DNA from: Frigoribacterium sp. PhB24
Lineage (GTDB): Bacteria > Actinomycetota > Actinomycetes > Actinomycetales > Microbacteriaceae
Assembly: GCF_003755185.1 (NCBI RefSeq)
Contig: NZ_RKIC01000009.1
Coordinates: 744,001 to 808,000, forward strand
DNA: 64,000 nucleotides
Direction: 5' to 3'
Numbering within the stretch: position 1 is the first letter of the stretch; every line of letters starts with the position of its first letter. The notes under the pieces are model-generated. The model was given only the letters and a program-made list of their open reading frames with translations. It was not told the origin of the DNA and made no database searches. A program made the position numbers and the translations under genes. Below, piece after piece: positions 1,291 to 60,897 of this stretch.

Positions 1291-1390
1291 AGGAGGCGCG
1301 GGTCGAGCCGGCGGACAGGGCGCCGACGAGCAGGGCGGGCTGGGTACGCTGACGGGGTGACCGATGCCGCCGAGCCGACCCGCGCCTCCT
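1291..1390. repeat. Inverted pair of the AGGAGGCGCG dispersed repeat flanking the fic start
   Basis: AGGAGGCGCGGGTCG at 1291-1305 is the exact reverse complement of 1376-1390, a perfect 15-bp inverted pair. The left copy lies upstream of the fic promoter. The right copy lies inside the first codons of fic and encodes part of PTRASS. The other inverted pairs of the window are annotated at 5576, 26914, 32836 and 46421. Confidence 0.7.
1345..1350 (+). promoter_or_regulatory. -10 box placed for a leaderless fic transcript
   Basis: TACGCT fits the actinobacterial -10 consensus TAnnnT and ends 6 nt before the GTG at 1357. That spacing would start the transcript at or next to the start codon. No ribosome binding site lies before the GTG, which agrees with leaderless translation. 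No clear -35 is visible. Confidence 0.4.
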
Positions 1391-2781
1391 CGTCCGAAGC
1401 TGTGTATACGCCGTTCCCGTCCTTCGCAACGTGGATGCGGTCCTTCTCGATGGACGAACGACTGTTCGCGACCTTCGCCACCCGTCTGTCGACGGCAAAG
1501 GACGGCGCTGACCCCGAGTCATTGAGGGAGGCGATCGAGACCGCGACCAAGTGGGCGGCCATCGACACCGGAGCGATCGAGGGACTCTACGAGGTCGACC
1601 GTGGGTTCACGTTCTCGGTCGCGGCAACGGCGGCGGCGTGGGACAACATCCACTTGGCCAAGAATGAGCAGACAGAGCGGGCCATCAAGGACGCGCTCGA
1701 GGCCTACGACTTCGTCCTCGACGCGGCGACTCGACGGACGCCGATCTCCGAGATGCTGATCAAGACGATCCACGAGATCATCTGCCGGTCGCAGGACGAG
1801 CACTCGGTCGTGACGGCCGTCGGCCTGCAGAAACAGGAGATGCCGAAGGGTGAATACAAGAAGCACGCCAACAGCCCGTTCAACATCGCGACCGAGACGG
1901 TACATGCCTACGCATCGGTGCTCGACACACCGCCCGAGATGGCACGACTCATCGCCGAATTGTCGAGTGACGAGTTCGCATCGGCACATCCCGTGGCGCA
2001 GGCGTCGTATGCGCACTACGCGTTCGTATGCATCCATCCCTTCGCTGACGGCAACGGCCGGGTGTCTCGTGCACTGGCGTCGATCTACCTCTACCGCCAG
2101 CCCGGCGTGCCGCTGGTCATCTTCGCAGACCAGAAAAACCTCTACATCGACGCGCTTGAAGCTGCTGATGTCGGGCAGTTCGGACAGTTCCAGCAGTTCA
2201 TCGCGGATGCCACGATCGACACGATCCAGTCCGTCGTCGAGCAGTTCAGAAGCAGCAAAGCGAACTCCGAACAAGATGTCCAGGCTCGTCTCCGAGACGC
2301 GCTCGTCGGCCCTGGCGGATTGCCTCACGACGAGGTCGATTCGCTGGCCCGTCGCTTGCTGGCCGAGTTTGCTGCTGCCCTGGAAGATGCGTGTACCGCT
2401 GCCAACCTCCAAGCACCCCTGGAAGTGACCGTTCAATCCAACGTTCATTACGATCCGACGGCCCTGCCCGAGGGTTATCGGCCTCTGGGCAACAGGTCCA
2501 GCCTGATCCTGACCGTCACGAGTGCCGAACCTGCCGGCGCAAGGTTGGAACATTACTTCGCGGCGAGCGTGGCGCGTCCGACGACGACAGGTGCCGACCT
2601 AGCCATTCACGACGGTTCTGGCATGCTCGTCGCGGAAGCTTTTGTACGAGATCTGGCTCCGCGCTTGTCTTCCTCCCTTGCCTACCGCCTCGAATTGACT
2701 GCGGCACGGCTCGTCGGCGAACTCGTGTCCCGAACTGCTTCTGCTGCCGCTGACACCCTCCGACAGAATGGCTACCTCTGA
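1357..2781 (+). CDS. Fic-domain protein (probable AMP-transferase), self-inhibited type
   Basis: 474 aa. The Fic core motif HPFADGNGR starts at His227; in characterised Fic enzymes this His deprotonates the target hydroxyl and the NGR loop binds ATP. The inhibitory motif [ST]xxxE[GN] is present as TGAIEG, residues 71-76, with Glu75, upstream of the core. That marks a class II, self-inhibited Fic. A long C-terminal part of about 200 aa follows, predicted helical and of unknown role. GTG 1357 is chosen over an upstream ATG because the upstream part is arginine-rich, runs through repeat DNA and has no family similarity. Its stop overlaps hisN by one base (TGATG). GC falls to about 55% in its C-terminal half. 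No antitoxin gene is adjacent. Target and biological role are unknown. Confidence 0.85.
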   Translation: MTDAAEPTRASSSEAVYTPFPSFATWMRSFSMDERLFATFATRLSTAKDGADPESLREAIETATKWAAIDTGAIEGLYEVDRGFTFSVAATAAAWDNIHLAKNEQTERAIKDALEAYDFVLDAATRRTPISEMLIKTIHEIICRSQDEHSVVTAVGLQKQEMPKGEYKKHANSPFNIATETVHAYASVLDTPPEMARLIAELSSDEFASAHPVAQASYAHYAFVCIHPFADGNGRVSRALASIYLYRQPGVPLVIFADQKNLYIDALEAADVGQFGQFQQFIADATIDTIQSVVEQFRSSKANSEQDVQARLRDALVGPGGLPHDEVDSLARRLLAEFAAALEDACTAANLQAPLEVTVQSNVHYDPTALPEGYRPLGNRSSLILTVTSAEPAGARLEHYFAASVARPTTTGADLAIHDGSGMLVAEAFVRDLAPRLSSSLAYRLELTAARLVGELVSRTASAAADTLRQNGYL

Positions 2782-3578
2782 TGGCGGAGAACGACTCCTT
2801 AGTGTGGGCGGACGACCTGGCGCTCGCGCTCGAACTGGCCGACCTGGCCGACGCGATCAGCACCGAACGGTACCGGTCGGCCGACCTGCACGTGTCGCTC
2901 AAGCCCGACCGGTCGCACGTGACGGACGCCGACCAGGCGGTCGAGCGGGCGATCCGCGAGCGGGTCGCGGCCGCGCGTCCGGACGACACCTTCTACGGCG
3001 AGGAGTACGGCCACGACGCCCCCTCGCACCGCCAGTGGGTGGTCGACCCGATCGACGGCACGGCGAACTTCTTGCGCGGAGTGCCGGTCTGGGCGGCGTT
3101 GATCTCGCTGGTCGTCGACGGGGTGCCCGTGGTGGGTGTCGTGAGCGCACCGGCCCTCGGGCGGCGCTGGTGGGCGACGCAGGGCGGCGGAGCGTTCTCG
3201 ACCGAGCACGAGGGGCCGCTGCGGGTGTCGGGCGTGCGCGACCTGGCCGATGCGTCGTTGAGCTTCAACGGGCTCGAGTACTGGATCGACGCCGGGCGCC
3301 TGCCGCAGCTGCTCGAGCTGACGAGCCGGGTCTGGCGGACGCGGGCGTACGGCGACTTCTGGTCGTACATGCTCGTCGCCGAGGGCGCGCTCGACGTCGC
3401 GGGCGAGTTCGACCTGCAGCCCTACGACATGGCGGCCGTGGCGGTCGTCGTCGAGGAGGCCGGCGGACGGTTCACCAGCGCCGACGGTCGGCCCGGGCCG
3501 TGGCACGGCACCGCGATGGCGACGAACGGGCTGCTGCACGAGACCGTCCTCGGGGTCGTGGCCGCGCCTCCTGCCTGA
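2781..3578 (+). CDS. hisN: Histidinol-phosphatase of the inositol monophosphatase family
   Basis: 265 aa. Predicted to remove phosphate from L-histidinol phosphate, the penultimate step of histidine synthesis, using Mg2+. Metal ligands are visible: GEEYG around residues 73-77 and the motif DPIDGT at 89-94. The second metal motif near the C-terminus is FDLQPYDMAAVAVVVEEAGG. In actinobacteria the copy next to rsgA is usually HisN rather than a general inositol phosphatase, so the assignment rests on family and context. The start overlaps the fic stop by one base. Residue 7 is a TTA codon, rare in this DNA, and the first dozen residues may have been rebuilt at the fic insertion junction. The last residues (AAPPA) are encoded by an AGGAGGCGCG-type repeat (3563-3572). 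Confidence 0.88.
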   Translation: MAENDSLVWADDLALALELADLADAISTERYRSADLHVSLKPDRSHVTDADQAVERAIRERVAAARPDDTFYGEEYGHDAPSHRQWVVDPIDGTANFLRGVPVWAALISLVVDGVPVVGVVSAPALGRRWWATQGGGAFSTEHEGPLRVSGVRDLADASLSFNGLEYWIDAGRLPQLLELTSRVWRTRAYGDFWSYMLVAEGALDVAGEFDLQPYDMAAVAVVVEEAGGRFTSADGRPGPWHGTAMATNGLLHETVLGVVAAPPA

Positions 3579-5575: not shown

Positions 5576-5633
5576 CGACCCGCGCCTCCTGGGCTCTGCC
5601 GGTTCAGGGGACCGAGAGCCGAGGAGGCGCGGG
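5576..5633. repeat. Inverted pair of the AGGAGGCGCG repeat, probable terminator of fdhA
   Basis: CGACCCGCGCCTCCT (5576-5590) faces AGGAGGCGCGGG (5622-5633). Between them GGCTCT and AGAGCC extend the pairing, so the RNA could form a long hairpin. It lies just after the fdhA stop on the minus strand and upstream of the exporter gene. It may serve as a terminator while being a member of the dispersed family. Confidence 0.6.
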
Positions 5634-7186: not shown

Positions 7187-8626
7187 GTGGAACTCCGTGA
7201 CTACATCCGCATTCTCCGCAAGGGCTGGATCTTCATCGCCGCCCTCACGCTCGCCGGCGTCGCCGCGGGAGCCCTCGCCTCGATCCTGGCCACGCCGACC
7301 TACGTGTCGTCGACCCGGCTGTTCGTCTCGGTGCAGGCGCAGGACTCGTCGACCACGGGCGACGCGGTCCAGGGCAGCAGCGCGGCTCAGCAGAAGGTGC
7401 GGTCGTACGTCGACGTCGTGACGAGCGACGCCGTGCTCGACCCGGTGATCGACCAGCTCGGCCTCGACACGACGGCCGCGGCGCTGGCCGGTCAGATCAC
7501 CGCCGACTCCCCCCTGAACACCGTCTTGATCAACATCACCGTGACCGACACCGACGCCCAGCGGGCGGCCGACGTCGCCAACGCGGTGGGCACCTCCCTG
7601 ACCGACGTGGTCGTGAACGAGCTCGAGACGCCCGCGGACGGAGGCGCGAGCCTGGTCAAGATCGCCACGATCGTCCCCGGGTCGGTCGCCTCGGCACCCG
7701 CGACCCCCCGCACCGCGCTCAACCTGGGCCTCGGCCTGTTGATCGGCCTGGCCCTCGGCGTCGGAGCCGCCGTGCTGCGCAGCACGCTCGACACCCGCAT
7801 CCACGGTTCGCACGACGTCGAGCTCGTCACCGACGCGCCCATCGTCGGCGGCATCAGCTACGACCCCGGGGCCAAGAAGCACCCGCTGATCGTGCACGTC
7901 GACCCCCGCAACCCGCGCGCCGAGTCGTTCCGCACCCTGCGCACGAACCTGCAGTTCGTCAACGTGGAGTCGGCCAGTCGCTGCTTCGTCGTCACGTCGT
8001 CGCTGCCCGGAGAGGGCAAGACGACCACGACGGCCAACCTCGCGGTGGCCCTCGCCGAGACCGGCGCCACCGTCGCCGTCGTGGACGGTGACCTGCGTCT
8101 GCCCCGCCTGGCCGACACGCTGGGCCTCGAGGGCGTCGTCGGCTTGACCGACGTGCTGATCGGCCGTGCCGACCTGCAGGACGTGCTGCAGCCCTGGGGG
8201 CGCGGCACGATGTACGTGCTGCCGGCCGGCCGCGTTCCCCCGAACCCGAGCGAGCTGCTCGGCTCGAAGGCCATGTCGTCGCTCATCGAGTCGCTCACGA
8301 CGTCGTTCGACTACGTGTTGATCGACGCGCCTCCGCTGTTGCCGGTCACCGACGCGGCGATCCTCAGCAAGTTGACCGGTGGGGCGATCGTCGTCTCGGC
8401 CGCGGGACGCACGACCCGCAACGAGCTGCAGTCGGCGCTACGCAACCTCGAGCACATCGGCAGCCGGGTGCACGGCATCGTGCTGACCATGCTGCCCACC
8501 AAGGGACCGGACGCGTACGGGTACGGCAACTACGGCGCGTACTACGGCATGGAGCAGGACGCTCCCGAGGCGGGCGTGGGCGACCTGCCTGTCGCTCCCA
8601 AGACGAGCTCACGCTCGGCGAAGTAG
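7187..8626 (+). CDS. Polysaccharide co-polymerase fused to bacterial tyrosine autokinase (Wzz-BY-kinase)
   Basis: 479 aa. An N-terminal Wzz chain-length domain lies between two membrane segments (about residues 13-37 and 180-205), with an outside loop. A cytoplasmic kinase follows: Walker A PGEGKTTTT at residues 274-282, Walker A' VVDGDLRLPR, and Walker B VLIDAPP. The tyrosine-rich tail (YGYGNYGAYYG) is the autophosphorylation site of this family. Such proteins set polymer length and tune synthesis by cycles of phosphorylation. GTG 7187 is chosen because VELRDYIRILRKGW starts the conserved Wzz domain; the longer upstream frame has no coding character. A phosphatase gene follows by 7 bp, so kinase and phosphatase form a pair. 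Confidence 0.92.
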   Translation: MELRDYIRILRKGWIFIAALTLAGVAAGALASILATPTYVSSTRLFVSVQAQDSSTTGDAVQGSSAAQQKVRSYVDVVTSDAVLDPVIDQLGLDTTAAALAGQITADSPLNTVLINITVTDTDAQRAADVANAVGTSLTDVVVNELETPADGGASLVKIATIVPGSVASAPATPRTALNLGLGLLIGLALGVGAAVLRSTLDTRIHGSHDVELVTDAPIVGGISYDPGAKKHPLIVHVDPRNPRAESFRTLRTNLQFVNVESASRCFVVTSSLPGEGKTTTTANLAVALAETGATVAVVDGDLRLPRLADTLGLEGVVGLTDVLIGRADLQDVLQPWGRGTMYVLPAGRVPPNPSELLGSKAMSSLIESLTTSFDYVLIDAPPLLPVTDAAILSKLTGGAIVVSAAGRTTRNELQSALRNLEHIGSRVHGIVLTMLPTKGPDAYGYGNYGAYYGMEQDAPEAGVGDLPVAPKTSSRSAK

Positions 8627-8633
8627 GCCCGGG

Positions 8634-9272
8634 ATGTCCTTCGTGATCCCCCGCCCGACGTCGACGACCTTCTCGCTGCTGACCGTCTGCACCGGCAACA
8701 TCTGTCGATCGCCGTTGGCCGAGCTGTACCTGCGTCGCGGTCTCTCGTCGCTCGACGACGTCACCGTGTCGAGCGCCGGCACGATGGCCGTGGACGACGA
8801 CGTGATGCCCGACCAGGCCCGGGCCCTGGCCCGGTCGTTCGACCTCGAGCCCGACGAGCACCGGGCGCGCTTCCTGTTCGAACGAGACGTCCGCGACGCC
8901 GACCTCGTGATCGCCCTCGCTCGCGAGCACCGCCGGGCCGTGGTCTCGATGCACCCGCGGGCCAGCCGCTACACGTTCACGCTGCGCGAGGCCGCACGCC
9001 TCGCCCGAGACGTGACCGACGCCCAGCTGGCCGACGCCCTGCCCTCGGACGCGTCGGCCACCGCCGACCGACTGCGGGCCACCGTCGCCCTGCTGGCCTC
9101 GCGCCGGGGTTCGGTCGAGGCCCCGGACGATCCGCTCGACGACGACGTGGTCGACCCGTACCGTCGGTCGGACGAGACGTTCGCCGAATCGGGGCGTCAG
9201 CTGGTGCCCGCCGCCGACGTGCTCGTCGACCTGCTGACCCGTGCCGCCGCGCTCGACGGGGGTGGGCGCTGA
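8634..9272 (+). CDS. Low-molecular-weight protein-tyrosine phosphatase
   Basis: 212 aa. The phosphate-binding loop VCTGNICRSP has catalytic Cys19 and Arg25, the CX5R signature of the family. The general acid aspartate is probably in DPYRRSDE near residue 176, where canonical members have DP[YF]. Longer than the usual 150 aa because of an insertion in the middle. By position it should reset the tyrosine tail of the preceding kinase. The gene overlaps the next by one base (TGATG), suggesting translational coupling. Confidence 0.9.
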   Translation: MSFVIPRPTSTTFSLLTVCTGNICRSPLAELYLRRGLSSLDDVTVSSAGTMAVDDDVMPDQARALARSFDLEPDEHRARFLFERDVRDADLVIALAREHRRAVVSMHPRASRYTFTLREAARLARDVTDAQLADALPSDASATADRLRATVALLASRRGSVEAPDDPLDDDVVDPYRRSDETFAESGRQLVPAADVLVDLLTRAAALDGGGR

Positions 9273-10242
9273 TGCCGGACGCACGTCGCAAGAGGGGCTC
9301 GCGAGCCCGGGCCCGCCGCCGCCTGGCCATCGTGGGGATCAGCGCCTTCGTCCTCGTCGACCTCGGTCTCGTCGCGCTCGCGTTGACCCGCGAACCGTCC
9401 GGTCTGGCTGCCGACGCGCAGCCTGCGGCCAGCCCGGCTCCCGTCCCGGTCGAGACCACCGCCGAGCCGGAACCCACCGAGACGCCGACCGCCGTGGCCG
9501 AGGCCGTGCCCCCCACCCGCCTGCTGTCGGCGGTCGACGCCGACACCGCCTGGCGGGCCGAGGCGGGCACGTGCACGCCCGGCACGCCGGGGACGACCCC
9601 GACGCTCGAACTGACCACGTCGGCGGGCGATGCCTGGGCACCCTCGTCGGTGTCGACGACCGGCTCGCCCGCAGGCGTCGACAGGCTCCAGGCGACGGAC
9701 GCCGCGAGCGCCTTCGTCGTCGGACCGTCCGGCTCGACATGCACGCCGGCGTTCTCGCAGACCTTCTCCGGCGGTGCCGAGTACCGGAACTACCCCGAGC
9801 GTCTGGCGGCGTCATGGTACGTCGCGCGGACCGCTCCGGACGTCGTGCACTCCCCGTCGGGCGACCACGAGGCGCCGTGTCCGGCCGTCGTCGACCTCGC
9901 GGTCGTCAGCGACGCCCAGGCCGGGGTGCTCTGCAGCGATCGACGGTTCTTCCGCACGGGTGACGGCGCGAGCACCTGGGACGCGGGCACCGTCGTCGAC
10001 GGCGCCGTCGCGGTCACCGCGGTGTCGGGCCGCTTCCTCGTGGCCTCGGTCGGCGCGGTCGACTGCGACGGGACCGCCGTCGACTCGCCGGCGACGACCG
10101 CGGGGGCGACCTCGACCCGTGTCGGGTGTGCTCCGGCGTCGTCCGACACCCCGGGATCGGTGGCCCTGTCCGGTGGCGGAGGCTCGGTGTGGCTGTGGGC
10201 GGGCGACGACGTGCTCGTGTCGGCCGACGGCGGGGTGACCTG

Positions 10243-10246
<4 letters not shown>
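9272..10246 (+). CDS. Membrane-anchored extracytoplasmic protein with Asp-box (BNR-like) motifs
   Basis: 324 aa, function unknown. A basic N-terminus and a hydrophobic segment (about residues 14-36, AIVGISAFVLVDLGLVALAL) give a signal anchor. An Ala/Pro/Thr/Glu-rich linker follows to about residue 80, then a globular part with several cysteines. Two Asp-box-like motifs are seen: RTGDGASTW near residue 230 and VSADGGVTW at the very C-terminus. Asp boxes mark beta-propeller blades in sialidases and YCF48-like proteins, but here the protein ends on the box, so any propeller is partial. It sits between the phosphatase and the dehydratase with overlaps on both sides, so it belongs to the polysaccharide operon. 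Its role is unknown. Confidence 0.7.
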
Positions 10247-12041
<1,795 letters not shown>

Positions 12042-12045
<4 letters not shown>

Positions 12046-13187
12046 CAGAACGCATCTACATGAGCTCGCCCGACGTCGGCGAGCTCGAGGAGCAGGCCGT
12101 CGTCGCCGCCATGCGCGGAGGGTGGATCGCCCCGCTCGGCCCCGACGTCGACGGCTTCGAGCGCGACGTGGCCGCGCGCGTGGGAGTCGACCACGGTGTC
12201 GCGCTCAGCTCGGGCACCGCAGCACTGCACGTCGCCCTGGTCGCCTGGGGTGTCGGGCCGGGCGACGTGGTCCCGACGTCCACGATGACCTTCGCGGCTA
12301 CGGCGAATGCCATCGCGTACACGGGCGCGACGCCCTACTTTGTCGACTGCGACCCGGAGACGGGCAACATCGACCCCGGCCTCCTCGGTGAGGTCCTCGA
12401 CGAACTCCGAGCCGAAGGAGCTCGCGTCCCCGTCGTCGTGCCCGTCGATCTGCTGGGCAAGGCCGTGGACTACACGAGCATCCTCGAGCTCGCGGACGAG
12501 CACGGATCACGCGTGCTGTCCGACGCGGCAGAATCGCTCGGCGCGACCCACGTCGGCCGTGCCGCGGGGTCGTTCGGTGACGCATCGGTGGTGTCGTTCA
12601 ACGGCAACAAGATCATGACGACCTCCGGCGGGGGCATGTTGCTCACCGACGACGGGGATCTCGCGACACGGGTGCGATACCTGTCGACCCAAGCGCGGCA
12701 GCCCGTCACCCACTACGAGCACACCGAGATCGGCTACAACTACCGTCTCAGCAACCTGCTCGCGGCACTGGGCCGAGCCCAGCTCTCCCGGCTGGACGAC
12801 ATGATCGCTCGCCGACGCGCCGTTCGCGATCGCTACCGGGCCTTCTTCGCCGGCATCGACGGCGTCGAGTTGTTCGGGGCAACCGACGACGCAGGTGACA
12901 ACTGCTGGTTGACATCGATCCTCGTCGACGAGTCCACGACCGGTTACAGCACCGCCGAGATCTCCCGGGTCCTTGCCGAAGACCAGATCGAGTCACGACC
13001 GCTCTGGAAGCCGATGCACCTCCAGCCCGTCTTCGAGGGTGCCCGGCAGCGGACCAACGGTGCGTCCGAGTCCTTGTTTCGGCGGGGGCTCACTCTCCCG
13101 AGTGGCTCAGCACTCTCCGAGGCCGAGGTGGATCGCGTTCTCGCCGCGCTCTCAATCGTCATGGGAGAGGCCGGCGGGCGTGCCTGA
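12042..13187 (+). CDS. DegT/DnrJ/EryC1-family sugar aminotransferase
   Basis: 381 aa PLP enzyme, fold-type I. The PLP-binding lysine is Lys190 in SFNGNKIMTTSGGGML. The family N-terminal signature occurs as GSxxAP-like WIAPLGPDVDGFE. It is predicted to aminate the 4-keto sugar made by the dehydratase, giving a UDP-4-amino-4,6-dideoxy sugar. GTG 12042 overlaps the dehydratase stop as GTGA. Its 3' end overlaps the next gene by 8 bp. Dehydratase, aminotransferase, acyltransferase and phosphoglycosyl transferase in one operon follow the logic of the bacillosamine pathway; the exact product is inference. Confidence 0.88.
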
Positions 13188-14220
13188 GCTCGCGTCCTTC
13201 GAAGTCCTCGATCGTCGTGAGCCCGAACAACTCGCGGCCTGGCTGAGCGCCTGGGCCGCGAGTGACGACGCGGACCCGTTCGGCCACCCCACACACGTCG
13301 ACCTCTTCGCCGGCCCGAGCGACGCCGCTCACTGCGCCGTGTTCACCTGGAACGGCGGCTCGATCTTGCTGCCCTTCGTCCTCCGTGCCATCGACGGCAC
13401 CAGGCATCGCGACGTGACGTCGGCCTATGGCTACGGCGGCCCGTTCACGAGCGGCGAGGTCACGATGGACCGCTGGCGCGACTTCTGGGCCGGCTTCGCC
13501 GCATGGTGCACCGGCCAGGGCGTCGTGTCGGAGTTCCTCCGGTTCAGCACGTCCCCGGACCCACTTGACATCGCCTACCCCGGGCAGCTGCACCACCGAT
13601 CGACGACGGTCGTCCGCACTCTCGACCTGGAGCCCGACGCTCTATGGATGGACTTCGAGCACAAGGTACGGAAGAGCGTCAACAAGGCCCGTCGATCGGG
13701 GGTCGAGATCAGCGTCGACACCGAGGGAGAACGCCTCGAGGAGTTTCTCGCCATCTACGAGGGCACGATGGAACGTCGCGGTGCGCACGAGCGCTATCTC
13801 TTCGGGCGACGCTTCTTTGAGCGCATCCGCGACGAGATGAGCGGCTCCTTTGTCTTCTTCCACGCCGACGTCGACGGCACCTTAGTGTCAACAGAGCTCG
13901 TCTTGACCGGGCGAAACAGGCTCTATTCCTACCTCGGAGGCTCCGATGAATCGGCTTTCGCCCTCCGTCCTAACGACCTGCTTAAACACAGCGTAATGAC
14001 CTGGGGCATGGCCAGGGGCGCCACAGAATTTGTCCTGGGAGGCGGTGCAGCACCAGGAGACGGCATCGAGCGCTACAAGCTCTCGTTCGCGTCTGACGGG
14101 GCCCACAAATTTTTTACGGGTCAAAGGATCGTTGACTCCCGAGCCTACGATCGCTTGGCGGCGCAGCGAGCCATCACAGACACATCCTTCTTTCCGGCAT
14201 ACCGTGCGGAGCAACAATGA
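13180..14220 (+). CDS. FemAB/GNAT-like acyltransferase
   Basis: 346 aa. Middle and C-terminal parts match the FemAB-related acetyltransferase fold: KVRKSVNKARRSGVEI, a helix carrying ERRGAHERYLFG, a strand FVFFHADVDGTLVSTELV and FVLGGGAAPGDGIERYKLSF near the end. It probably N-acylates the amino sugar formed upstream, though FemX-type aminoacyl transfer is possible. The GTG at 13180 starts 8 bp before the end of the aminotransferase gene. Base composition changes inside this gene: up to about 13.86 kb it is high-GC like the flanks, and from codon 235 (a TTA) on it is A/T-richer. This looks like a recombination joint. Confidence 0.75.
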   Translation: MPELASFEVLDRREPEQLAAWLSAWAASDDADPFGHPTHVDLFAGPSDAAHCAVFTWNGGSILLPFVLRAIDGTRHRDVTSAYGYGGPFTSGEVTMDRWRDFWAGFAAWCTGQGVVSEFLRFSTSPDPLDIAYPGQLHHRSTTVVRTLDLEPDALWMDFEHKVRKSVNKARRSGVEISVDTEGERLEEFLAIYEGTMERRGAHERYLFGRRFFERIRDEMSGSFVFFHADVDGTLVSTELVLTGRNRLYSYLGGSDESAFALRPNDLLKHSVMTWGMARGATEFVLGGGAAPGDGIERYKLSFASDGAHKFFTGQRIVDSRAYDRLAAQRAITDTSFFPAYRAEQQ

Positions 14221-15419
14221 AGATACGAATGCTTGTCGGGGGGCGCCCTAGCGTCTCCCCAGATGAAATTGAGCGCATGACTCAAGGGCTGCGGCAACTT
14301 GGCCATCACGTCGAGGTAAGGGTGCGGGGTAGATGTGACGACAACAGATCCAATCCTCCTCTCCGTGTCAAGTTCCTAATCGTCAAGCGGGTTATCAAGG
14401 CGATAATTCGCCCTGCCCCAGACGTGGTCCTGGTCCGAGGCGCTGACCTCGCGACCAGCGTCGAGGCACTGACGCTCCACAAGGCAAGGAACGTTCCGTA
14501 CGTGGTCTGGACTGACACCGCTGTAGCTATGCCAGGTGGAATAACGGGACTAATTCTGCGCCTTGCGGTACGGTCTGCCGGCCGGGTCGTTGTGGACACT
14601 CCTACACCGAGCACGTGTCTCAAGGACCTCCGGGTGCCAATGGGCAAGGCCGATATCGTGGCACGGGTCGGAATCGACGGCGCCGGATCGGGGTACGTCA
14701 CGAACGGAAGCACGCCGCGCGAGACCCGTTGGCACGACGCGGCTCATCTTCTCCGAACCCTTGAACGCGCGCGGCCTCAGAAGCCCTGGCGAATGAGCGC
14801 GAAGCGCGCCCTCGATGTCGTCGGCAGTGCCGCCGTGATCGTCCTGGCCTCGATTCCACTCGTGGTTCTAGCGTCGACAACAGCAACGTTCATTGGTCGC
14901 CCTGTGCTGTTCCGTCAAACCCGACCAGGGCTATACGGCCAGCCTTTTCAGATGATCAAGTTCAGGACCATGACCGAGGCGACGGACAACCAGGGTGATC
15001 TCCTTCCCGACGCCCTCCGGCTTACTCCCTACGGACGTTTTCTCCGGGCGACGAGTCTTGACGAACTGCCGAGCCTGGTGAACGTCTTGTCCGGGCAGAT
15101 GTCGTTCGTCGGCCCCCGGCCACTTCTCTTCCGGTACATCCCTTGGTTCACCGAGACAGAACTGCAACGCCTGGATGTGAGACCCGGCATCACCGGGCTG
15201 GCCCAGGTGTCTGGCAGAAACACGACCACCTGGGACGACCGACTTGCATTCGATGTGTCCTACGTGCAGAAGCTCTCACTTCGCAAGGACGCCCGCCTAA
15301 TCGTTGCGACGCTGGTTCGAGTCTTCGAGCGTTCAGGTGTCGTCGTCGACCCAGTCTCGATCATGAAGGACCTCGACGAAGAACGAAAGTCCCGGATTAT
15401 CAGTGGAGGACACCGATGA
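14217..15419 (+). CDS. Phosphoglycosyl transferase with an N-terminal half glycosyltransferase domain
   Basis: 400 aa. Residues from about 193 (MSAKRALDVVGS) form a monotopic sugar-phosphate transferase of the PglC/WbaP core type. It has one re-entrant hydrophobic helix, then FRQTRPG, KFRTM, the DE dyad in SLDELPSL, SFVGPRPLL, RPGITGLAQVSGR and a C-terminal basic tail. It moves a sugar phosphate from UDP to undecaprenyl phosphate to begin each repeat unit. Residues 1-190 look like the acceptor-side N-terminal Rossmann domain of a GT4 glycosyltransferase (MKIRMLVGGRP...LGHHVEV, VLVRGAD, YVVWTDT), but the donor-binding C-terminal half is missing. The start overlaps the previous stop as ATGA. 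GC is lower than in the flanks. Confidence 0.85.
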   Translation: MKIRMLVGGRPSVSPDEIERMTQGLRQLGHHVEVRVRGRCDDNRSNPPLRVKFLIVKRVIKAIIRPAPDVVLVRGADLATSVEALTLHKARNVPYVVWTDTAVAMPGGITGLILRLAVRSAGRVVVDTPTPSTCLKDLRVPMGKADIVARVGIDGAGSGYVTNGSTPRETRWHDAAHLLRTLERARPQKPWRMSAKRALDVVGSAAVIVLASIPLVVLASTTATFIGRPVLFRQTRPGLYGQPFQMIKFRTMTEATDNQGDLLPDALRLTPYGRFLRATSLDELPSLVNVLSGQMSFVGPRPLLFRYIPWFTETELQRLDVRPGITGLAQVSGRNTTTWDDRLAFDVSYVQKLSLRKDARLIVATLVRVFERSGVVVDPVSIMKDLDEERKSRIISGGHR

Positions 15420-18700: not shown

Positions 18701-18741
18701 CTGGCAGTGGTGGCGGCATCCCGTTAGGGCCTGCACAACTG

Positions 18742-19947: not shown

Positions 19948-19956
19948 GGTCGTCGT

Positions 19957-45513: not shown

Positions 45514-46125
45514 TCACACCTCGGGCCCGTCCGTGCCCCCGCTCACGCGGGAGGCGCGGGCGGGCCCTCGGCGTCCACGCCGACGTCGCACCTCCAGCAG
45601 TCCCGTCGCCACGGCGTAGCCCGCGTAGCCGAGCAACGCGATCGCCAGCAACGGCACGATCCACGACCGGGCATCACCGTTCACGACCTGGTTGACGAAT
45701 CCGAGCCACGGCACCGAGTACCACAACGTCCCGCGCACCTGCTCGGGCAGGACGAGGGCCTCGTCGGGCTCGGAATTGTCGTCGCCCTTCGTGACGAAGG
45801 CCGTGCGGCCGTCGGACGACGACACGATCTCGATCACCCGGTGGCTGATCACCTCGGGCCGGCCGCTCTCGATCTGGTAGGTGACGACGTCGCCCAGGTG
45901 GATCCCGCCGACCGGCGTCGGCTTCACCACGATCAGGGTGCCCGGGGGCAGGCGCGGCTCCATCGAACCGGTCAGCACCGTGAGGGGCGTGGCCCCGGCC
46001 GCCTTCGGCACGACGACCAGCACCAGCGCGAGCCCCAGCACGAGAGCGAACAGACCCGCGCTGAGGCCGAGGACGAGAGCGTGCAGCAGGCCTTTCTCGC
46101 GCACCGCGGCCCGGCGGCCTCTCAC
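45514..46125 (-). CDS. SipW-type (ER-type) signal peptidase I, second copy
   Basis: 203 aa. Catalytic Ser54 in LTGSMEPRLP and His95 in ISHRVIEI instead of lysine, with the acidic pair KGDDNSEPD (113-121). Membrane segments are at about 15-42 and 155-177. It ends the second operon of alternate-signal proteins and should process them. GTG 46125 overlaps the preceding stop as GTGA. It is clearly different from the copy at 33332 (SMEP versus SMSP, no long N-terminal tail), so the two peptidases may serve different substrates. Confidence 0.88.
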   Translation of the reverse strand: MRGRRAAVREKGLLHALVLGLSAGLFALVLGLALVLVVVPKAAGATPLTVLTGSMEPRLPPGTLIVVKPTPVGGIHLGDVVTYQIESGRPEVISHRVIEIVSSSDGRTAFVTKGDDNSEPDEALVLPEQVRGTLWYSVPWLGFVNQVVNGDARSWIVPLLAIALLGYAGYAVATGLLEVRRRRGRRGPARASRVSGGTDGPEV

Positions 46126-47992: not shown

Positions 47993-48606
47993 GACGTCAC
48001 CTGCGTCCCCGACACGGTGATCGTCAGGTCGGCGACCGAGCCCGACGTGGCCGCGGGGGCGTCCGGATCGAGGGCGAGGACGAGACACGCGAGGGCCGAG
48101 ATGCCCGAGGGGAGCGTGAAGTACCCCGAGCCGGTGTCGAAGGCGGCCGGCCGGGCCGAGTACCCGCCGGTGGTCGTCGCCGTGCAGTCCGAGGCCGACG
48201 AGACCGGCGTGATGCGCAGCGTCAGTTCGTCGAGCGAGCCCGCGCCGGTACCCGACTCGCCGGACGACGTCCTGGTCGTGGTGACGGCCACCCTCATCGA
48301 CAGCGGGACGTCGCCGCCGTTCGTCACCGAGAAGGTGGTCGCGGTCGCCTGCCCGGGGGCGAGCGGCGTGCCGAGGTTCGGCTGCCCGGAGATCGAGAGC
48401 GCGGCCGTCCCCGACCTCACGACCTGGGCGTTCGAGGTCGAGGACGTGTTCCACAGCGCGTACGTGCCGCCCGTCGCCACGAGGGCGACGGTGACGGCAC
48501 CGGCCACGACGGCCGTCCCCGCCCAGAGCGAACGCAGCGGACGCCGGGACGAGGAGGCGCGCTCGGTCGAGCGGTGACGCGCGCGTCCGCGGGACGGTCC
48601 GGGCAA
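47989..48606 (-). CDS. Alternate-signal exported protein, 205 aa (second SipW operon)
   Basis: An Arg/Ser-rich N-terminus, hydrophobic LWAGTAVVAGAVTVALVATGG and TYALWNTSSTSNA form the alternate signal. The mature domain of about 140 aa has FSVTNGGDVPLSMRVAVT, like the TasA/camelysin fold, and two cysteines (SDCTATT, ALACLV). The start is taken as TTG 48606 because GGGGTGAG lies 7 nt before it and no ATG or GTG is in place; this is inference. An AGGAGGCGCG copy (48552-48561) encodes ERASS in the N-terminal tail. Confidence 0.75.
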   Translation of the reverse strand: MPGPSRGRARHRSTERASSSRRPLRSLWAGTAVVAGAVTVALVATGGTYALWNTSSTSNAQVVRSGTAALSISGQPNLGTPLAPGQATATTFSVTNGGDVPLSMRVAVTTTRTSSGESGTGAGSLDELTLRITPVSSASDCTATTTGGYSARPAAFDTGSGYFTLPSGISALACLVLALDPDAPAATSGSVADLTITVSGTQVTS

Positions 48607-49742: not shown

Positions 49743-51743
<2,001 letters not shown>

Positions 51744-51753: not shown

Positions 51754-53934
51754 ATGACCACCACTCCCCCGACCGGACCCGACACGACCTTCGCTCTCGG
51801 CGACGACGAGGTCTACGCGGCTGCCACCGGCACCCACGGGCACCCGCACGCCGTCCTCGGCGCGCACCCCCGCGGCGGCCGCACCGCCGTCCGCGTCGTC
51901 CGACCGCTGGCCGACACGGTCACGGTGACCGGCGCCTCCGGGTCCTCGTTCGCGCTCGAGCACGTGGCCCACGGCCTCTGGCAGGGCGTCACCAGCGAGC
52001 CCCTCGACGCGTACACGGTCGAGGCGACCTACCAAGGAGGCGCGGCCTGGGTCTCCGACGACCCCTACCGCTTCGCCCCCACCGTCACCGAGTTCGACCT
52101 GTACCTGTTCGGCGAGGGGCGCCACGAGCAGCTCTGGAAGATGCTCGGCAGCCACGTGCGCGAGCACGAGGGCGTCACCGGCACCTCCTTCGCGGTCTGG
52201 GCCCCGCACGCCCGCGCCGTCCGTGTGAAGGGCGACCTCAACGGCTGGAACGGCGAACGGCACGCGATGCGCCGCCTCGACGGCAACGGCGTCTGGGAGC
52301 TCTTCGTGCCCGGCACCACGGACGGCATCTACAAGTACGAGATCCTCACGCCCGACGACGTCTGGGTCGACCGCGCGGACCCGATGGCGCGGACCTCCGA
52401 GGTGCCGCCGCTGACCGGTTCGGTCATCACGAAGGCCGGTCACGCCTGGGCCGACGACGCCTGGATGACCTCCCGCGGCGAGAACGACGTCCACGCGGGC
52501 CCGATGAGCGTCTACGAGTTGCACGTGGGCTCGTGGCGACCCGGCCTCGGCTACCGCGAGCTGGCCGACCAGCTGATCGAGTACGTCGGCGACCTGGGTT
52601 TCACCCACGTCGAGTTCATGCCGCTCGCCGAGCACCCCTTCGGTGGCTCGTGGGGCTACCAGGTCACGGGCTACTACGCGGTGACCAGCCGGTTCGGCAG
52701 CCCCGACGACCTGCGTTACCTGATCGACCGGCTGCACCAGGCCGGCATCGGCGTGATCATGGACTGGGTGCCCGGGCACTTCCCGAAGGACGAGTGGGCC
52801 CTGGCGAAGTTCGACGGTCGTGCCGTCTACGAGCACTCGGACCCACGCCGCGGCGAGCAGCCCGACTGGGGCACGCTGGTGTTCAACTTCGGCGACTCGC
52901 AGGTGCGCAACTTCCTCGTCTCGAACGCGCTCTACTGGCTCGAGGAGTTCCACATCGACGGGCTGCGCGTCGACGCGGTCGCCTCGATGCTCTACCTCGA
53001 CTACAGCCGCAACGAGGGCGAGTGGCTGCCCAACGAGTTCGGCGGGCGCGAGAACCTCGAGGCGATCAGCTTCTTGCAAGAGGCCAACGCGACGGCCTAC
53101 AAGCGCCACCCCGGCATCGTCATGATCGCCGAAGAGAGCACCAGCTGGCCCGGCGTCACGCGTCCGACGAGCGAGGGCGGCCTCGGCTTCGGCCTCAAGT
53201 GGAACATGGGCTGGATGCACGACACCCTCGACTACGTCGAGAAGGACCCGCTCTACCGCGCCTACCACCATGGCGAGATCACCTTCTCGTTCGTGTACGC
53301 CTTCAGCGAGAACTTCATGCTGCCGATCAGCCACGACGAGGTCGTGCACGGCAAGGGGTCGCTGCTGGCCAAGATGCCCGGCGACCAGTGGCAGAAGCTC
53401 GCCAACCTGCGCGCCTACCTCGCCTACATGTGGGGTCACCCCGGCAAGCAGCTGCTGTTCATGGGCAGCGAGTTCGGCCAGCCCAGCGAGTGGAGCGAAG
53501 AGCGCGGACTCGACTGGTGGATCCTCGACCAGCCCGTCCACCAGGGGCTGCACGGGCTCGTGTCGCGCCTCAACGAGGTGTACCGCGACGAGCCGGCACT
53601 CTGGGCGCACGACTTCGACACCGACGGCTTCGAGTGGATCGAGGGCGGTGCCGCCGAGCACAGCGTCGTGGCGTTCCTCCGCAAGTCGGGCTCGGGCGAG
53701 TCGGTCGCCGTCCTGGCGAACTTCTCGGGCCAGCCCGTGCGGATGCGCTTCGGTCTGCCCGAGGCGGGCCGGTGGGACGAGATCCTCAACACCGACGCCG
53801 AGGTCTACGGCGGCTCGGGCGTGGGCAACTTCGGCGGCGTGACCGCGACCGACGAGCCGTGGGCGGGCCGCCCCGCCGCGGCCGACGTTCAGCTGCCGCC
53901 GCTCGGCGTCGTCTGGCTCAAGTTGCGCCGCTGA
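51754..53934 (+). CDS. glgB: 1,4-alpha-glucan branching enzyme GlgB
   Basis: 726 aa. Two CBM48-like N-terminal domains (HPHAVLGAHPRGGRTAVRVVRP and SFAVWAPHARAVRVKGDLNGWNG) precede the GH13 barrel with MSVYELHVGSWRPG. The nucleophile is Asp407 (DGLRVDAVASMLYLDYSR), the acid Glu460 (MIAEESTSWPGVT), and ISHDEVVHGKGSL follows. It makes the alpha-1,6 branches. Start at ATG 51754 behind TAGGAG, which overlaps the glgE stop codon. An AGGAGGCGCG copy (52035-52044) lies in the first CBM region (QGGAAW). Confidence 0.94.
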   Translation: MTTTPPTGPDTTFALGDDEVYAAATGTHGHPHAVLGAHPRGGRTAVRVVRPLADTVTVTGASGSSFALEHVAHGLWQGVTSEPLDAYTVEATYQGGAAWVSDDPYRFAPTVTEFDLYLFGEGRHEQLWKMLGSHVREHEGVTGTSFAVWAPHARAVRVKGDLNGWNGERHAMRRLDGNGVWELFVPGTTDGIYKYEILTPDDVWVDRADPMARTSEVPPLTGSVITKAGHAWADDAWMTSRGENDVHAGPMSVYELHVGSWRPGLGYRELADQLIEYVGDLGFTHVEFMPLAEHPFGGSWGYQVTGYYAVTSRFGSPDDLRYLIDRLHQAGIGVIMDWVPGHFPKDEWALAKFDGRAVYEHSDPRRGEQPDWGTLVFNFGDSQVRNFLVSNALYWLEEFHIDGLRVDAVASMLYLDYSRNEGEWLPNEFGGRENLEAISFLQEANATAYKRHPGIVMIAEESTSWPGVTRPTSEGGLGFGLKWNMGWMHDTLDYVEKDPLYRAYHHGEITFSFVYAFSENFMLPISHDEVVHGKGSLLAKMPGDQWQKLANLRAYLAYMWGHPGKQLLFMGSEFGQPSEWSEERGLDWWILDQPVHQGLHGLVSRLNEVYRDEPALWAHDFDTDGFEWIEGGAAEHSVVAFLRKSGSGESVAVLANFSGQPVRMRFGLPEAGRWDEILNTDAEVYGGSGVGNFGGVTATDEPWAGRPAAADVQLPPLGVVWLKLRR

Positions 53935-53988: not shown

Positions 53989-54013
53989 CTGCCGTCGGTG
54001 CAGGAGGCGCGGC

Positions 54014-55021
54014 TCAGTACAACAGCATCGCCAGACGACGGCGGGCGGTCGCCACGCGAGGGTCGTCGACCCCGACGATCTCGAAGTACTCGAGGAGGCG
54101 CGCCCGGGCGGCGTCGCGGCCCTGCGGATCGAGTGACGGGAAGACGGTCAGCACACGGTCGAACGCGTCGTCGATGTGCCCGCCGCTGAGGTCGAGGTCG
54201 GCCACGTCGAGCTGGGCGTCGAGATCGGTGGGCGCGGCCGCGGCCGTCGCACGGACGTCGGCCAGCGACGCGCCCTGCAGCCGCTCGAGCAACGACACCT
54301 GGGCGAGCCCCGCCACGGCGAGCTGGTCGCGTGGGTCTTGGGCGATGGCGGTCTTGTAGGCCGTGATCGCCGCGGCGTAGTCGCCCCGGTCGATCGCGTC
54401 GTAGGCGTCCTGGTGGTGCGGGGGCAGCGGCTCCGGCTCGGGCTCGACGTCGTCGGTCTCGACGGCGGGGGCGCCGTCGACCACCGCCGTGCCGGTGACG
54501 CCGTTCTGAGCGGCGAGCTCGAGCACCTGCTCGAACACGTCGCGCACCTGGGCTTCGGGCAGGGCCCCGACGAAGAGCTGGACGGGACGACCGCCGATGA
54601 CGGCGGCCACCGCGGGGATCGACTGGGCCTGGAAGGCCTGGGTCAGCTGCGGGTTGGCGTCGACGTCGACCTTGACGAGCAGGAGACGGCCGGCGTACTC
54701 GCCGACCAGCTTGTCGAGGACGGGCGAGAGCTGCTTGCACGGGCCACACCACTCCGCCCAGAGGTCGACGATCACCGGGACGGTGTTGCTGATCTCGAGC
54801 ACCTGCGTGAAGGTCTCGTCGGTCGCGTCGAGCACGAGGCCCGGCACCGCGATCTGGCCGGCGGCCGCGGCCGGGGCGGCCCCCGCGCCTCCTGCGGTCG
54901 CGCCGTCGGCAGACGGCCCACCGGACGGGCCGGCCGGCGCGGGTGCCGGTGCGCGGTTGACCAGCGACGAGAGGTCCACGGCGCCGCGAAGGCCGGCGGG
55001 GACGGGAGGAAGGTTGGTCAT
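54014..55021 (-). CDS. Thioredoxin-TPR protein, CnoX/YbbN-like
   Basis: 335 aa. A Pro/Ala/Gly-rich N-terminal tail (to about residue 58, carrying an AGGAGGCGCG-type copy at 54884-54893) is followed by a thioredoxin fold with active-site Cys92 and Cys95 (WAEWCGPCKQLSP) and SIPAVAAVIGGRPVQLFVGALPE. The C-terminal third is TPR-like helices (AYDAIDRGDYAAAITAYKTAIAQDP), as in CnoX chaperedoxins, which protect proteins during oxidative stress. Unlike the E. coli protein, it keeps both cysteines. ATG 55021 overlaps the preceding stop (ATGA). Another repeat copy (54093-54102) encodes residues near the C-terminus (ARARLLEY). Confidence 0.9.
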   Translation of the reverse strand: MTNLPPVPAGLRGAVDLSSLVNRAPAPAPAGPSGGPSADGATAGGAGAAPAAAAGQIAVPGLVLDATDETFTQVLEISNTVPVIVDLWAEWCGPCKQLSPVLDKLVGEYAGRLLLVKVDVDANPQLTQAFQAQSIPAVAAVIGGRPVQLFVGALPEAQVRDVFEQVLELAAQNGVTGTAVVDGAPAVETDDVEPEPEPLPPHHQDAYDAIDRGDYAAAITAYKTAIAQDPRDQLAVAGLAQVSLLERLQGASLADVRATAAAAPTDLDAQLDVADLDLSGGHIDDAFDRVLTVFPSLDPQGRDAARARLLEYFEIVGVDDPRVATARRRLAMLLY

Positions 55022-60077: not shown

Positions 60078-60141
60078 AGCGGGCGGTCACCACCGCCGAC
60101 GGCGAGACACCGCGACAGACGCGGGCCGAGGTCGGACGCCG

Positions 60142-60897
60142 TCAGGAGGCGCGGGGCGGCCACGTGGACGGCAACGGCAGCGCACCGGGCGCCACCCGAC
60201 GGACGATCTCGGTCAACACGCGGCTGGTCTGCTTCTCTCCGACCCAGAGGTGCTTGCCCCCCTCGACGGCGACGACCTCGGCCTCGGGCACGAGGGCGAA
60301 CCGTCGACGGGCCTCGTCGGGCCGCAGGTAGTCGTCGAACTCGGGAACCACGGCCACGACGGGCAGGCCGACCCCGTGCCAGGCTCCGAGCTCGGCGTCC
60401 GACGTGCGATGCAGCGGCGGGGACAGCAGGACGACGCCCGCGACCTCGACGTCGAGGCCGTGCTTGAGGGCGACCTCGGTGCCGAACGACCAGCCCACCA
60501 GCCACGGCAGGGGCAGACCCCGCTGGCGCACGAAAGCCACGGCAGCGGCGAGGTCGGCCGCCTCGGCCACCCCCTCGCCGAACTCACCGTCGGAACGACC
60601 CCGCGGGGACGACACCCCACGGAAATTGAACCGGAGCACGGCCAGGTCGGCCAGGGCCGGCAGGCGGGCCGCCGCCTTGCGGATGACGTGGGAGTCCATG
60701 AACCCGCCGGCCGTGGGCAGGGGGTGCAAGGCGACGATCGTGCCGATGGGCTCACGATCGGCCGGCAGGCTCAGCTCGCCCACCAGCGTCAGTCCGTCAC
60801 CAGTGTGGAGTTCGACGTCCTCGCGGCGAGCGGGCAGCAGGACTCCCCCGCGGATGTCGGCGGCATCGGTGTCGGCGTCGATGTCGGGAGTGGTCAC
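60142..60897 (-). CDS. Alpha/beta hydrolase
   Basis: 251 aa. The nucleophile elbow is GWSFG, and HPLPTAGGFMDSHVIRKAAARL with VLRFNFRGVSSPRG are landmarks of the small alpha/beta-hydrolase family near KANL3/Tex30 and dienelactone hydrolase-like proteins. The acid is probably in PEFDDYLRPDEA and the catalytic His in GGKHLWVG. Substrate unknown. GTG 60897 has GGAGGATCTC directly upstream and overlaps the previous stop. The last residues (PPRAS) are encoded by an AGGAGGCGCG copy (60144-60153). Confidence 0.82.
   Translation of the reverse strand: MTTPDIDADTDAADIRGGVLLPARREDVELHTGDGLTLVGELSLPADREPIGTIVALHPLPTAGGFMDSHVIRKAAARLPALADLAVLRFNFRGVSSPRGRSDGEFGEGVAEAADLAAAVAFVRQRGLPLPWLVGWSFGTEVALKHGLDVEVAGVVLLSPPLHRTSDAELGAWHGVGLPVVAVVPEFDDYLRPDEARRRFALVPEAEVVAVEGGKHLWVGEKQTSRVLTEIVRRVAPGALPLPSTWPPRAS

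What the first reader, a model, noticed from the sequence alone, without database searches (positions are those of the whole stretch)
1291..60153. A 10-bp word, AGGAGGCGCG, occurs 25 times, often as inverted pairs
Copies of AGGAGGCGCG or its complement start at 1291, 1381, 3563, 5581, 5622, 26914, 26943, 28953, 30097, 30548, 32841, 32891, 35848, 36184, 38266, 41515, 41638, 46421, 46476, 48552, 52035, 54002, 54093, 54884 and 60144. A hand estimate from 70% GC predicts fewer than one in 64 kb. Flanks often extend to GGTCGG. Five inverted pairs (1291/1381, 5581/5622, 26914/26943, 32841/32891, 46421/46476) make hairpins, two of them at gene ends. In genes it falls in protein termini or linkers. 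The pattern resembles DNA uptake sequences or a REP/MITE family; it could also be a Chi-like or chromosome-segregation word. The copy in prfB (28953) is probably chance.
Basis: partly seen in the sequence, partly recalled or inferred. Interest (0 to 1): 0.8.

Follow-up and report, generated by a model that had tools for sequence, protein, structure and literature searches.

The report
Uptake-sequence-like DNA word in Frigoribacterium
A leaf-associated actinobacterium and the 15 sister genomes examined carry hundreds to over a thousand copies of one short DNA word that looks like the self-recognition tags by which some bacteria choose which DNA to take up, tags that I found described only in two Gram-negative families.

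Summary
AGGAGGCGCG occurs 25 times here and 1342 times in the 3.46-Mb genome (reversed control 15). The organism is a Frigoribacterium (Microbacteriaceae). The 16 genomes of the genus carry 513-1570 copies; of 315 searched outside it, one is mildly raised. The unit is a core, GGAGGCG(CG), with a preceding base that differs between species and a loose tail. It shows no strand bias, is about 7-fold denser between genes, favours protein ends, forms hairpins behind genes, changes by substitution and is absent from two prophages. Neisserial DUS and pasteurellacean USS share these features. In 71 of 108 other Microbacteriaceae CGGATGC(C/G)G is enriched instead (1 of 55 genomes from other families). 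Best explanation: an independently evolved DNA-uptake sequence, the first I found in Gram-positives, perhaps served by Flp/Tad pili with ComEA/ComEC; three genomes without a type IV pilus keep the word. Uptake preference and receptor are inferred, not shown. REP/MITE, Chi, segregation and codon-bias readings are rejected.

The parts
1291..1300 (+). word AGGAGGCGCG; inverted pair with 1381; near the start of a Fic-domain gene (called as 1357-2781 +; the ORF can also start at 1258)
   Evidence: Pfam Fic
1381..1390 (-). word in the N-terminal codons of the Fic-domain gene
3563..3572 (-). word in the last codons of an inositol-monophosphatase-family gene (2781-3578 +)
5581..5631 (.). inverted pair (5581 -, 5622 +), hairpin 14 bp behind the 3' end of an alcohol-dehydrogenase-like gene (5646-6866 -)
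   Evidence: fold z -4.5; Pfam
7640..7648 (+). 9-mer core GGAGGCGCG with another base at -1
8326..8334 (-). 9-mer core
8335..26914 (.). 18.6-kb stretch without the 9-mer core; contains an exopolysaccharide-type gene cluster (DegT aminotransferase, FemAB, sugar transferase, Wzy_C, glycosyltransferase, UDP-sugar dehydrogenase, LytR_cpsA_psr)
   Evidence: positions; Pfam; longest gap of the own sample (18589)
26914..26952 (.). inverted pair (26914 +, 26943 -), 19-bp stem, 17 bp behind the 3' end of the gene at 26969-27883 (-; called ftsX from gene order and recall, no family search run) and upstream of smpB (26374-26850 -)
   Evidence: MFE -39.8, z -8.6; kept in several species with different flanks; SmpB
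28953..28962 (+). word inside prfB (28727-29836 -); may be coincidental
   Evidence: Pfam PCRF and RF-1; intact in 7 of 11 species
30097..30106 (+). word in gene 29906-30508 (-); kept in nine relatives shown, while L005 (Leaf263) has three mismatches
30548..30557 (-). word in the gap on the 3' side of gene 30574-32409 (-)
32604..32612 (-). 9-mer core
32841..32900 (.). inverted pair (32841 -, 32891 +), loop 42, inside called gene 32406-33323 (-)
   Evidence: fold z -6.3
35848..35857 (+). word kept in 9 of 10 other species; F. endophyticum has GGAGTCGCG at the same place; lies inside the aminotransferase-V match on the - strand
   Evidence: Pfam Aminotran_5
36184..36193 (-). word present here and in four of ten relatives, the other six have different sequence; lies between a - strand aminotransferase match and a + strand CBM_48/amylase match, so probably intergenic (my gene caller put it in one long + gene)
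38266..38275 (+). word in the first codons of an aminoacyl-tRNA-editing-domain gene (38249-38752 +)
38667..38675 (+). 9-mer core
41515..41524 (+). word at the N-terminal end of an oligopeptide ABC ATPase gene (39437-41554 -)
41638..41647 (-). word near the C-terminal end of a transporter permease gene (41551-42621 -)
45550..45558 (+). 9-mer core
46421..46485 (.). inverted pair (46421 +, 46476 -), loop 45 between 9-mers, inside called gene 46122-47102 (-)
   Evidence: z -2.5
48552..48561 (+). word between genes 47989-48507 and 48765-49343
50215..50223 (-). 9-mer core
51402..51410 (-). 9-mer core
52035..52044 (+). word inside a glgB-like gene (51754-53934 +)
54002..54011 (+). word in the convergent gap between 51754-53934 (+) and 54014-55021 (-)
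54093..54102 (+). word near the C-terminal end of a thioredoxin/TPR gene (54014-55021 -)
54884..54893 (-). word in the N-terminal part of the same gene
60144..60153 (+). word in the last codons of an alpha/beta-hydrolase-like gene (60142-60897 -)

Best explanation
The word is a DNA-uptake-type sequence (like DUS/USS) of the genus Frigoribacterium. A receptor of the competence machine prefers DNA that carries GGAGGCGC(G). Cells therefore take up and recombine fragments of their own lineage, and alleles with an intact word replace alleles without it. Copies accumulate wherever the sequence is tolerated (between genes, at protein ends, as hairpins behind genes), and decayed copies are replaced. 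The receptor drifts, so species change the word one base at a time (dialects). Shown: abundance, genus restriction, core with variable flank, strand neutrality, location, difference by substitution in alignable places, better conservation than background in a small test, absence from two prophages, presence of comEC and dprA in the genus and of comEA and a Tad locus where read. Inferred: that the biased step is DNA uptake, that the machine is the Flp/Tad pilus with ComEA/ComEC, and that the CGGATGC(C/G)G word of other genera is a related dialect.
For: Counts and control. 16 of 16 genus genomes 513-1570 copies, 44 other relatives 0-61; in the 299-genome family draw the 292 outside the genus have at most 124, except G092 with 216. 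Sharp core: 26 single mismatches at its eight places against 24.3 expected, with tolerated change on both sides (my sums). Exact to one-mismatch 153:184, within the 1:1.15 and 1:1.45 quoted for two DUS genomes. Strand-neutral; 45 sense and 51 antisense in genes; 56 of 153 copies in the 7.7% of bases called non-coding; 42 of 96 coding copies in the outer tenths of genes. Within 200 bp 30 adjacent pairs are inverted and 5 tandem; of 14 tight inverted pairs 11 are intergenic, each 8-70 bp from a gene 3' end. Species dialects at similar core density. Substitution turnover; cores intact in 30 of 37 comparisons against about 16 expected. Two prophages in dprA with 0 cores, 9.9 and 5.4 expected at genome density. 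ComEC in 16 of 16, DprA matches in 16 of 16, comEA in G000, Tad loci in G000 and G003. [quoted passage not shown]
Against: No uptake or transformation experiment in Frigoribacterium was found, and no receptor was identified. ComEC and pilus ATPases occur also in genera without the word, so they do not explain specificity. The type IV pilus is missing in three genomes that keep 1204-1492 copies. Coding copies are denser in atypical genes (6.7, 6.0, 2.3, 2.1 per 10 kb from the least to the most typical quartile), so enrichment in core genes was not seen. The Microbacteriaceae shown to be transformable have genomes under 2 Mbp, and small-genome members of my draw mostly lack the CGGATGC excess. 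The tight-hairpin excess was seen in the own genome; the 80-kb sample of G005 had 3 pairs within 200 bp, none with a loop under 23. Inside the core there is no summed excess of one-mismatch forms, unlike the graded excess reported for H. influenzae and N. gonorrhoeae, although GGAGGCGGG is in excess (27 against 11.5). Prophages have lower G+C, and by composition alone only 0.54 cores would be expected in one, so they show absence of enrichment, not avoidance.
Confidence: 0.6

Rival explanations
1. Binding site of a lineage-specific chromosomal protein (nucleoid structure, repair or recombination hot spot), kept by selection at each site, with no role in uptake.
For: Would also give a sharp core, genus restriction and absence from prophages; genomes without a type IV pilus keep the word.
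Against: No strand bias, no even spacing (gap CV 1.2); placement follows tolerance. Separate selection on more than 1300 sites without a drive seems implausible (inference).
Confidence: 0.22
2. A HIP1-like abundant word linked to DNA modification or restriction, kept for an unknown reason.
For: The CGGATGC-type words of other genera lie mostly in coding sequence and are frame-biased.
Against: HIP1 is palindromic (recalled); this word is not, and the Frigoribacterium copies are about 7-fold denser between genes. No modification data were available.
Confidence: 0.1
3. A family of transcription terminators in which the word is a preferred hairpin arm.
For: 11 of 14 tight inverted pairs lie 8-70 bp behind gene 3' ends; the folded ones beat shuffles; 17 copies in 4521 bp of convergent gaps.
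Against: 96 of 153 copies are in called genes in either orientation, and only 14 tight pairs occur among 242 cores. Terminator use looks secondary, as described for DUS.
Confidence: 0.05
4. A polar replication or segregation word (Chi-like, KOPS-like) or a codon-usage artefact.
For: G-rich and abundant.
Against: No consistent strand bias in 21 stretches of the own sample or in genes; synonymous-codon null maximum 13 against 61 observed.
Confidence: 0.02
5. REP/MITE-type mobile element.
For: Many copies, some inverted pairs.
Against: Flank information falls to near zero within roughly ten bases; in alignable cells without the word 63 are ungapped and 4 gapped. In 405 cells no alignment was possible, so insertion there is not excluded.
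Confidence: 0.01

Closest known systems
DNA uptake sequence (DUS) of Neisseriaceae and its dialects
   Same: Ten-base asymmetric word, 943 to nearly 6000 copies per genome in the examples quoted, conserved inner core with dialects, inverted pairs linked to terminators, permissive placement, similar exact to one-mismatch ratio.
   Different: Host is a monoderm actinobacterium; the word is unrelated; ComP itself was not searched for; genomes without a type IV pilus keep the word; no uptake data.
Uptake signal sequence (USS) of Pasteurellaceae
   Same: Abundance, bias to gene termini, fewer copies in ORFs than expected, no general genome orientation bias (65% of USS in ORFs against about 86% coding; here 63% against 92%).
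   Different: Different word and phylum; USS and DUS show one orientation more often in reading frames, here 45 against 51; no uptake data.
Flp/Tad-pilus competence of Micrococcus luteus
   Same: Same phylum; comEA, comEC, dprA and a five-gene Tad cluster resembling the described tad-2.
   Different: The term 'uptake sequence' does not occur in that paper's main text; the role of Tad in Frigoribacterium is untested.
HIP1 of cyanobacteria (recalled)
   Same: Lineage-specific, very abundant short word.
   Different: HIP1 is palindromic; this word is asymmetric, enriched between genes and has dialects.

Membership tests
DUS/USS-type uptake sequence | Hundreds to thousands of copies of a roughly 10-bp asymmetric word that tops the over-represented words | tested here: met
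DUS/USS-type uptake sequence | No general strand bias in the genome | tested here: met
DUS/USS-type uptake sequence | Excess in non-coding DNA and at gene termini; inverted pairs behind genes | tested here: met
   (own gene caller; tight hairpins not seen in the 80-kb sample of G005)
DUS/USS-type uptake sequence | Dialects around a conserved core | tested here: met
   within the genus, 12 of 16 genomes sampled; relation to the family-wide CGGATGC word is suggestive only
DUS/USS-type uptake sequence | Not enriched in recently acquired DNA | tested here: met
   0 cores in two prophages; exopolysaccharide-type cluster without cores
DUS/USS-type uptake sequence | Competence genes present | tested here: met
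   comEC 16 of 16; DprA matches 16 of 16, split in 2; comEA read in G000; TadA-like hit 16 of 16, Tad locus by Pfam in 2
DUS/USS-type uptake sequence | Graded excess of one-mismatch forms | tested here: inconclusive
   184 one-mismatch 10-mers against 123.5 expected, mostly at outer places; no summed excess inside the core
DUS/USS-type uptake sequence | The word raises DNA binding or uptake through a specific receptor | not testable with these tools
   needs experiments
Neisserial DUS (type IV pilus and ComP) | Maintained through a type IV pilus | tested here: not met
   G002, G003, G006 lack N_methyl pilins and the PilB-type hit yet hold 1249, 1492 and 1204 copies; one clade in a single-locus tree, support 0.91. 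Recent separate losses would weaken this
Chi / KOPS | Strand bias along replichores | tested here: not met
   origin and terminus were not mapped
REP/MITE | Extended conserved unit with insertion at orthologous sites | tested here: not met
HIP1 | Palindromic octamer (recalled) | tested here: not met
   the word is not its own reverse complement
Intrinsic terminator | Hairpin followed by a T-run | tested here: not met
   hairpins behind genes, no T-run in the 16 bases on either side

The most novel reading that the evidence does not exclude
Microbacteriaceae as a family use a sequence-coded self-recognition system for DNA uptake, with CGGATGC(C/G)G as the widespread word and GGAGGCGC(G) as the diverged Frigoribacterium dialect (shared GGA-GC frame; the intermediate GGATGCGCG is in excess in G002). 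It would be a third independent origin of uptake sequences, in monoderm bacteria, working through a Flp/Tad pilus instead of a type IV pilus.
Probability: 0.4. Interest if true: 0.93.

Novelty: new variant of a known kind. Interest (0 to 1): 0.86.

Why it matters
The papers seen here describe uptake sequences in Neisseriaceae and Pasteurellaceae. An unrelated case in a monoderm phylum, with dialects, with genomes that lost the type IV pilus and with prophages sitting in dprA, would be a natural comparison that separates what belongs to the receptor from what belongs to the drive. It also predicts that adding the word eases the entry of DNA into these bacteria, and that word-rich genes mark exchange within the genus.

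Tried and rejected
Markov over-representation in orthologous loci was swamped by conserved low-GC words and was replaced by samples from separate places. TGGGCGTGGG of G031 was a coding repeat, 15 of 15 copies in one frame and in the first fifth of genes. G092, the one raised genome outside the genus (216, control 75), showed only a weak excess of GGAGGCGC (46 against 20). The type IV pilus was my first candidate machine and was demoted after the genomes without it; their clade rests on one locus of about 2.5 kb with support 0.91, and by plain identity G006 is nearest to G014, so separate losses are possible. Enrichment in typical genes was not found; the opposite trend was. The table used one label for intact words and single mismatches; it was redone, and the conservation counts do not use that label. 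The reversed control of CGGATGCSG contains TAG and is too low in coding DNA, so the family claim rests on other families and on synonymous-codon nulls. Gene calls are from my own hexamer caller; at 35-38 kb it made one + gene where Pfam shows a - strand aminotransferase and a + strand CBM_48/amylase match. Four stretches of G019 could not be had because its contig 1 is short. L226 was fetched and not read. Curtobacterium was read only at the ftsX locus. G009, G010, G013 and G014 were not sampled for dialects.

Literature: searches listed no paper whose title or shown abstract start reports an uptake sequence in Microbacteriaceae or another Gram-positive. Searches had no hit; some searches listed only the top 15, 15, 15 and 8 of 838, 847, 31 and 23. 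Only open-licence PMC papers are held. Passages were read of PMC4322843, PMC3630211 (and its section 11), PMC1939737, PMC6370729, PMC11577799 and PMC2346458; other papers were seen as listings only.
Full report
OBSERVATION. AGGAGGCGCG occurs 25 times in the window, at the stated places; dinucleotide shuffles give 0.69 on average and 4 at most. In the whole genome (G000, 3,457,365 bases, 17 contigs; window = C1:744001-808000) it occurs 680 + 662 times against 15 for the reversed word. The window carries a tmRNA, the only Rfam match at gathering threshold, beside smpB. A search with the protein at 26969-27883 (ftsX by gene order, a recalled label) returned named genomes: 10 of the 11 best loci are Frigoribacterium, then mostly Curtobacterium. 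So the organism is a Frigoribacterium or very near it, family Microbacteriaceae.

DISTRIBUTION. Among 60 genomes (16 of the genus with G000, 44 others) the genus holds 513 to 1570 copies each and the others 0 to 61. In a 299-genome draw from the family, 7 belong to the genus; the other 292 have at most 124 copies, except G092 with 216 (control 75). The two calls share 21 genomes, so 315 different genomes outside the genus were searched.

ANATOMY. The own sample is 451,373 bases (stretches plus the window) with 153 copies. Inside GGAGGCGC single substitutions sum to 26 against 24.3 expected by a third-order Markov model; the base in front (A preferred, C and G tolerated) and the following G vary, and a loose G-G-T-C-G tail follows (my sums). 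The 9-mer GGAGGCGCG has 242 copies, one per 1.9 kb. Its variant GGAGGCGGG is also in excess (27 against 11.5), so the end of the core is less strict. Exact to one-mismatch 10-mers are 153 to 184; 1:1.15 and 1:1.45 are quoted for two DUS genomes. One-mismatch forms of the 8-mer are below a composition estimate (1058 against 1689).

PLACEMENT. By my own gene caller 96 of 153 copies are in genes, 56 between genes and 1 on an edge, while 92.3% of bases are coding: about a 7-fold higher density between genes (my arithmetic). In genes 45 are sense and 51 antisense, and 42 of 96 lie in the first or last tenth. No stretch-wide strand bias appears. Within 200 bp there are 30 inverted and 5 tandem neighbours, 35 in all against 25.7 expected; nine facing pairs have loops of 11-21, where I estimate about 0.7. 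Of 14 inverted pairs with loops up to 50, three are inside called genes and 11 are intergenic, each 8-70 bp from a gene 3' end, without T-runs. Five examples fold with z from -2.5 to -8.6. In the 80-kb sample of G005 no facing pair was tight. Convergent gaps hold 17 copies in 4521 bp. Copies are denser in atypical than in typical genes.

DIALECTS. In samples of 12 of the 16 genomes (80 kb each, 451 kb for G000) the 9-mer has similar density, 24-48 per 80 kb. The base in front is mostly A, nearly tied with C in G011 (13 A, 12 C), C in G004 (27 C, 11 G, 8 A) and G in G007 (19 G, 12 C, 11 A). G007 also over-uses GGAGTCGCG (15 against 2.0), G008 GGAGGTGCG (14 against 3.0) and G002 GGATGCGCG (9 against 1.7). 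G007 matches F. endophyticum AS3.20 in contig length and in the ftsX region; at the site of window 35849 that species has GGAGTCGCG where the other nine relatives have the word.

TURNOVER. In an 11-way alignment of the ftsX region, over 55 sites with a core in any species, 133 cells have it, 67 alignable cells do not (13 by one base, 25 by two, 13 by three, 10 by four, 2 by five, 4 with a gap) and 405 are not alignable. Where alignment is possible the word thus differs by substitution. The window's cores (at most 7 sites) are intact in 30 of 37 species comparisons against about 16 expected from background 9-mers (my sum); these comparisons are few and share ancestry.

FOREIGN DNA. DprA matches are split in G006 and G010 by elements of 18.1 and 18.5 kb that begin with a serine-recombinase-like gene and carry phage-type genes (functions recognised by eye, no family search). 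Neither holds a core, against 5.4 and 9.9 at genome density, though composition alone predicts only 0.54 in one. One of 380 windows of that size in the own sample is empty; the longest gap, 18,589 bases, is window 8335-26914, with an exopolysaccharide-type cluster.

MACHINERY. ComEC matches occur in all 16 genus genomes and in 29 of 30 genomes searched, DprA matches in all 16; ComEA lies beside ComEC in G000. A type IV pilus operon lies in G000 between rpoC-like and rpsL-like genes (labels by eye; Pfam for its main genes). N_methyl pilins and the PilB-type hit are found in 13 of 16. The three without, G002, G003 and G006, hold 1249, 1492 and 1204 copies and form one clade in a single-locus tree with support 0.91. 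If the loss was single, the word has been kept without a type IV pilus; separate recent losses are not excluded. A TadA-like hit is present in all 16, and a five-gene Tad locus was read in G000 and in G003 (three to four of five genes with Pfam support in each). [quoted passage not shown] Rhodoluna lacicola and Aurantimicrobium photophilum, other Microbacteriaceae, are naturally transformable (passages).

FAMILY CONTEXT. Samples from other genera had a different leading word built on CGGATGC: CGGATGCCG in G143, G016, G067, G139 and G100, CGGATGCG(T) in G086, AGCGGATGC in G023 and G017. A synonymous-codon null leaves CGGATGCCG 7- to 14-fold in excess in G067, G139, G100, G143 and G016, and not in G082, G031 or G000. 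CGGATGCSG reaches at least three times its reversed control in 71 of 108 Microbacteriaceae outside the genus and in 1 of 55 genomes of other families; in two Frigoribacterium it is at control level (291/263 and 205/283). The word is strand-neutral where checked. Its density between genes relative to genes ranges from 0.4 to 2.3, 3.8 for one 10-mer, and it is frame-biased in genes, unlike the Frigoribacterium word. So kinship is a suggestion, supported by the shared GGA-GC frame, by mutual exclusion and by the GGATGCGCG excess in G002.

MECHANISM AND VERDICT. A word that is favoured wherever it lands, on either strand, explains placement by tolerance, scarcity of decayed forms and one-base dialect shifts. 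Biased uptake followed by recombination is the accepted cause for such words in Neisseriaceae and Pasteurellaceae. I put 0.6 on an uptake sequence, 0.22 on another chromosomal binding site, 0.1 on a modification-linked word. Uptake itself and the receptor remain to be shown.

Noticed in passing
G010 (L243, L244) and G006 (L245, L246): Prophage-like elements of about 18 kb split dprA in two different Frigoribacterium species (the other 14 of 16 have an unsplit match): mobile elements in a competence gene.
   Followed up: partly
L149:4653-17645 (G000 contig 4): Type IV pilus operon between rpoC-like and rpsL-like genes; pilin and PilB matches in 13 of 16 Frigoribacterium.
   Followed up: partly
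L109-L112 (G023), L235-L238 (G100), L239-L242 (G082): Other repeats: GGGTTGAGGA and GGTTTCGAGA in G023, GGTTTCGACA and TTGAGCCTGT in G100, CGTATCGAGA in G082; they may be longer REP-type repeats.
   Followed up: no
L129-L132 (G072) and Curtobacterium ftsX loci: Palindrome CGGATCCG strongly over-represented (106 against 15.9 in the codon null; 120 against 2 reversed in orthologous Curtobacterium loci, which are not independent).
   Followed up: partly
own sample L081-L100 and window: Runs of nine or more G, and CGGGGGAGT / GGGGGAGTC, are also over-represented.
   Followed up: no
window 8335-26914: Exopolysaccharide-type cluster, partly with low coding scores, without the 9-mer core.
   Followed up: partly
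G092 (genus g76): The one genome outside the genus with a raised AGGAGGCGCG count (216, control 75).
   Followed up: partly
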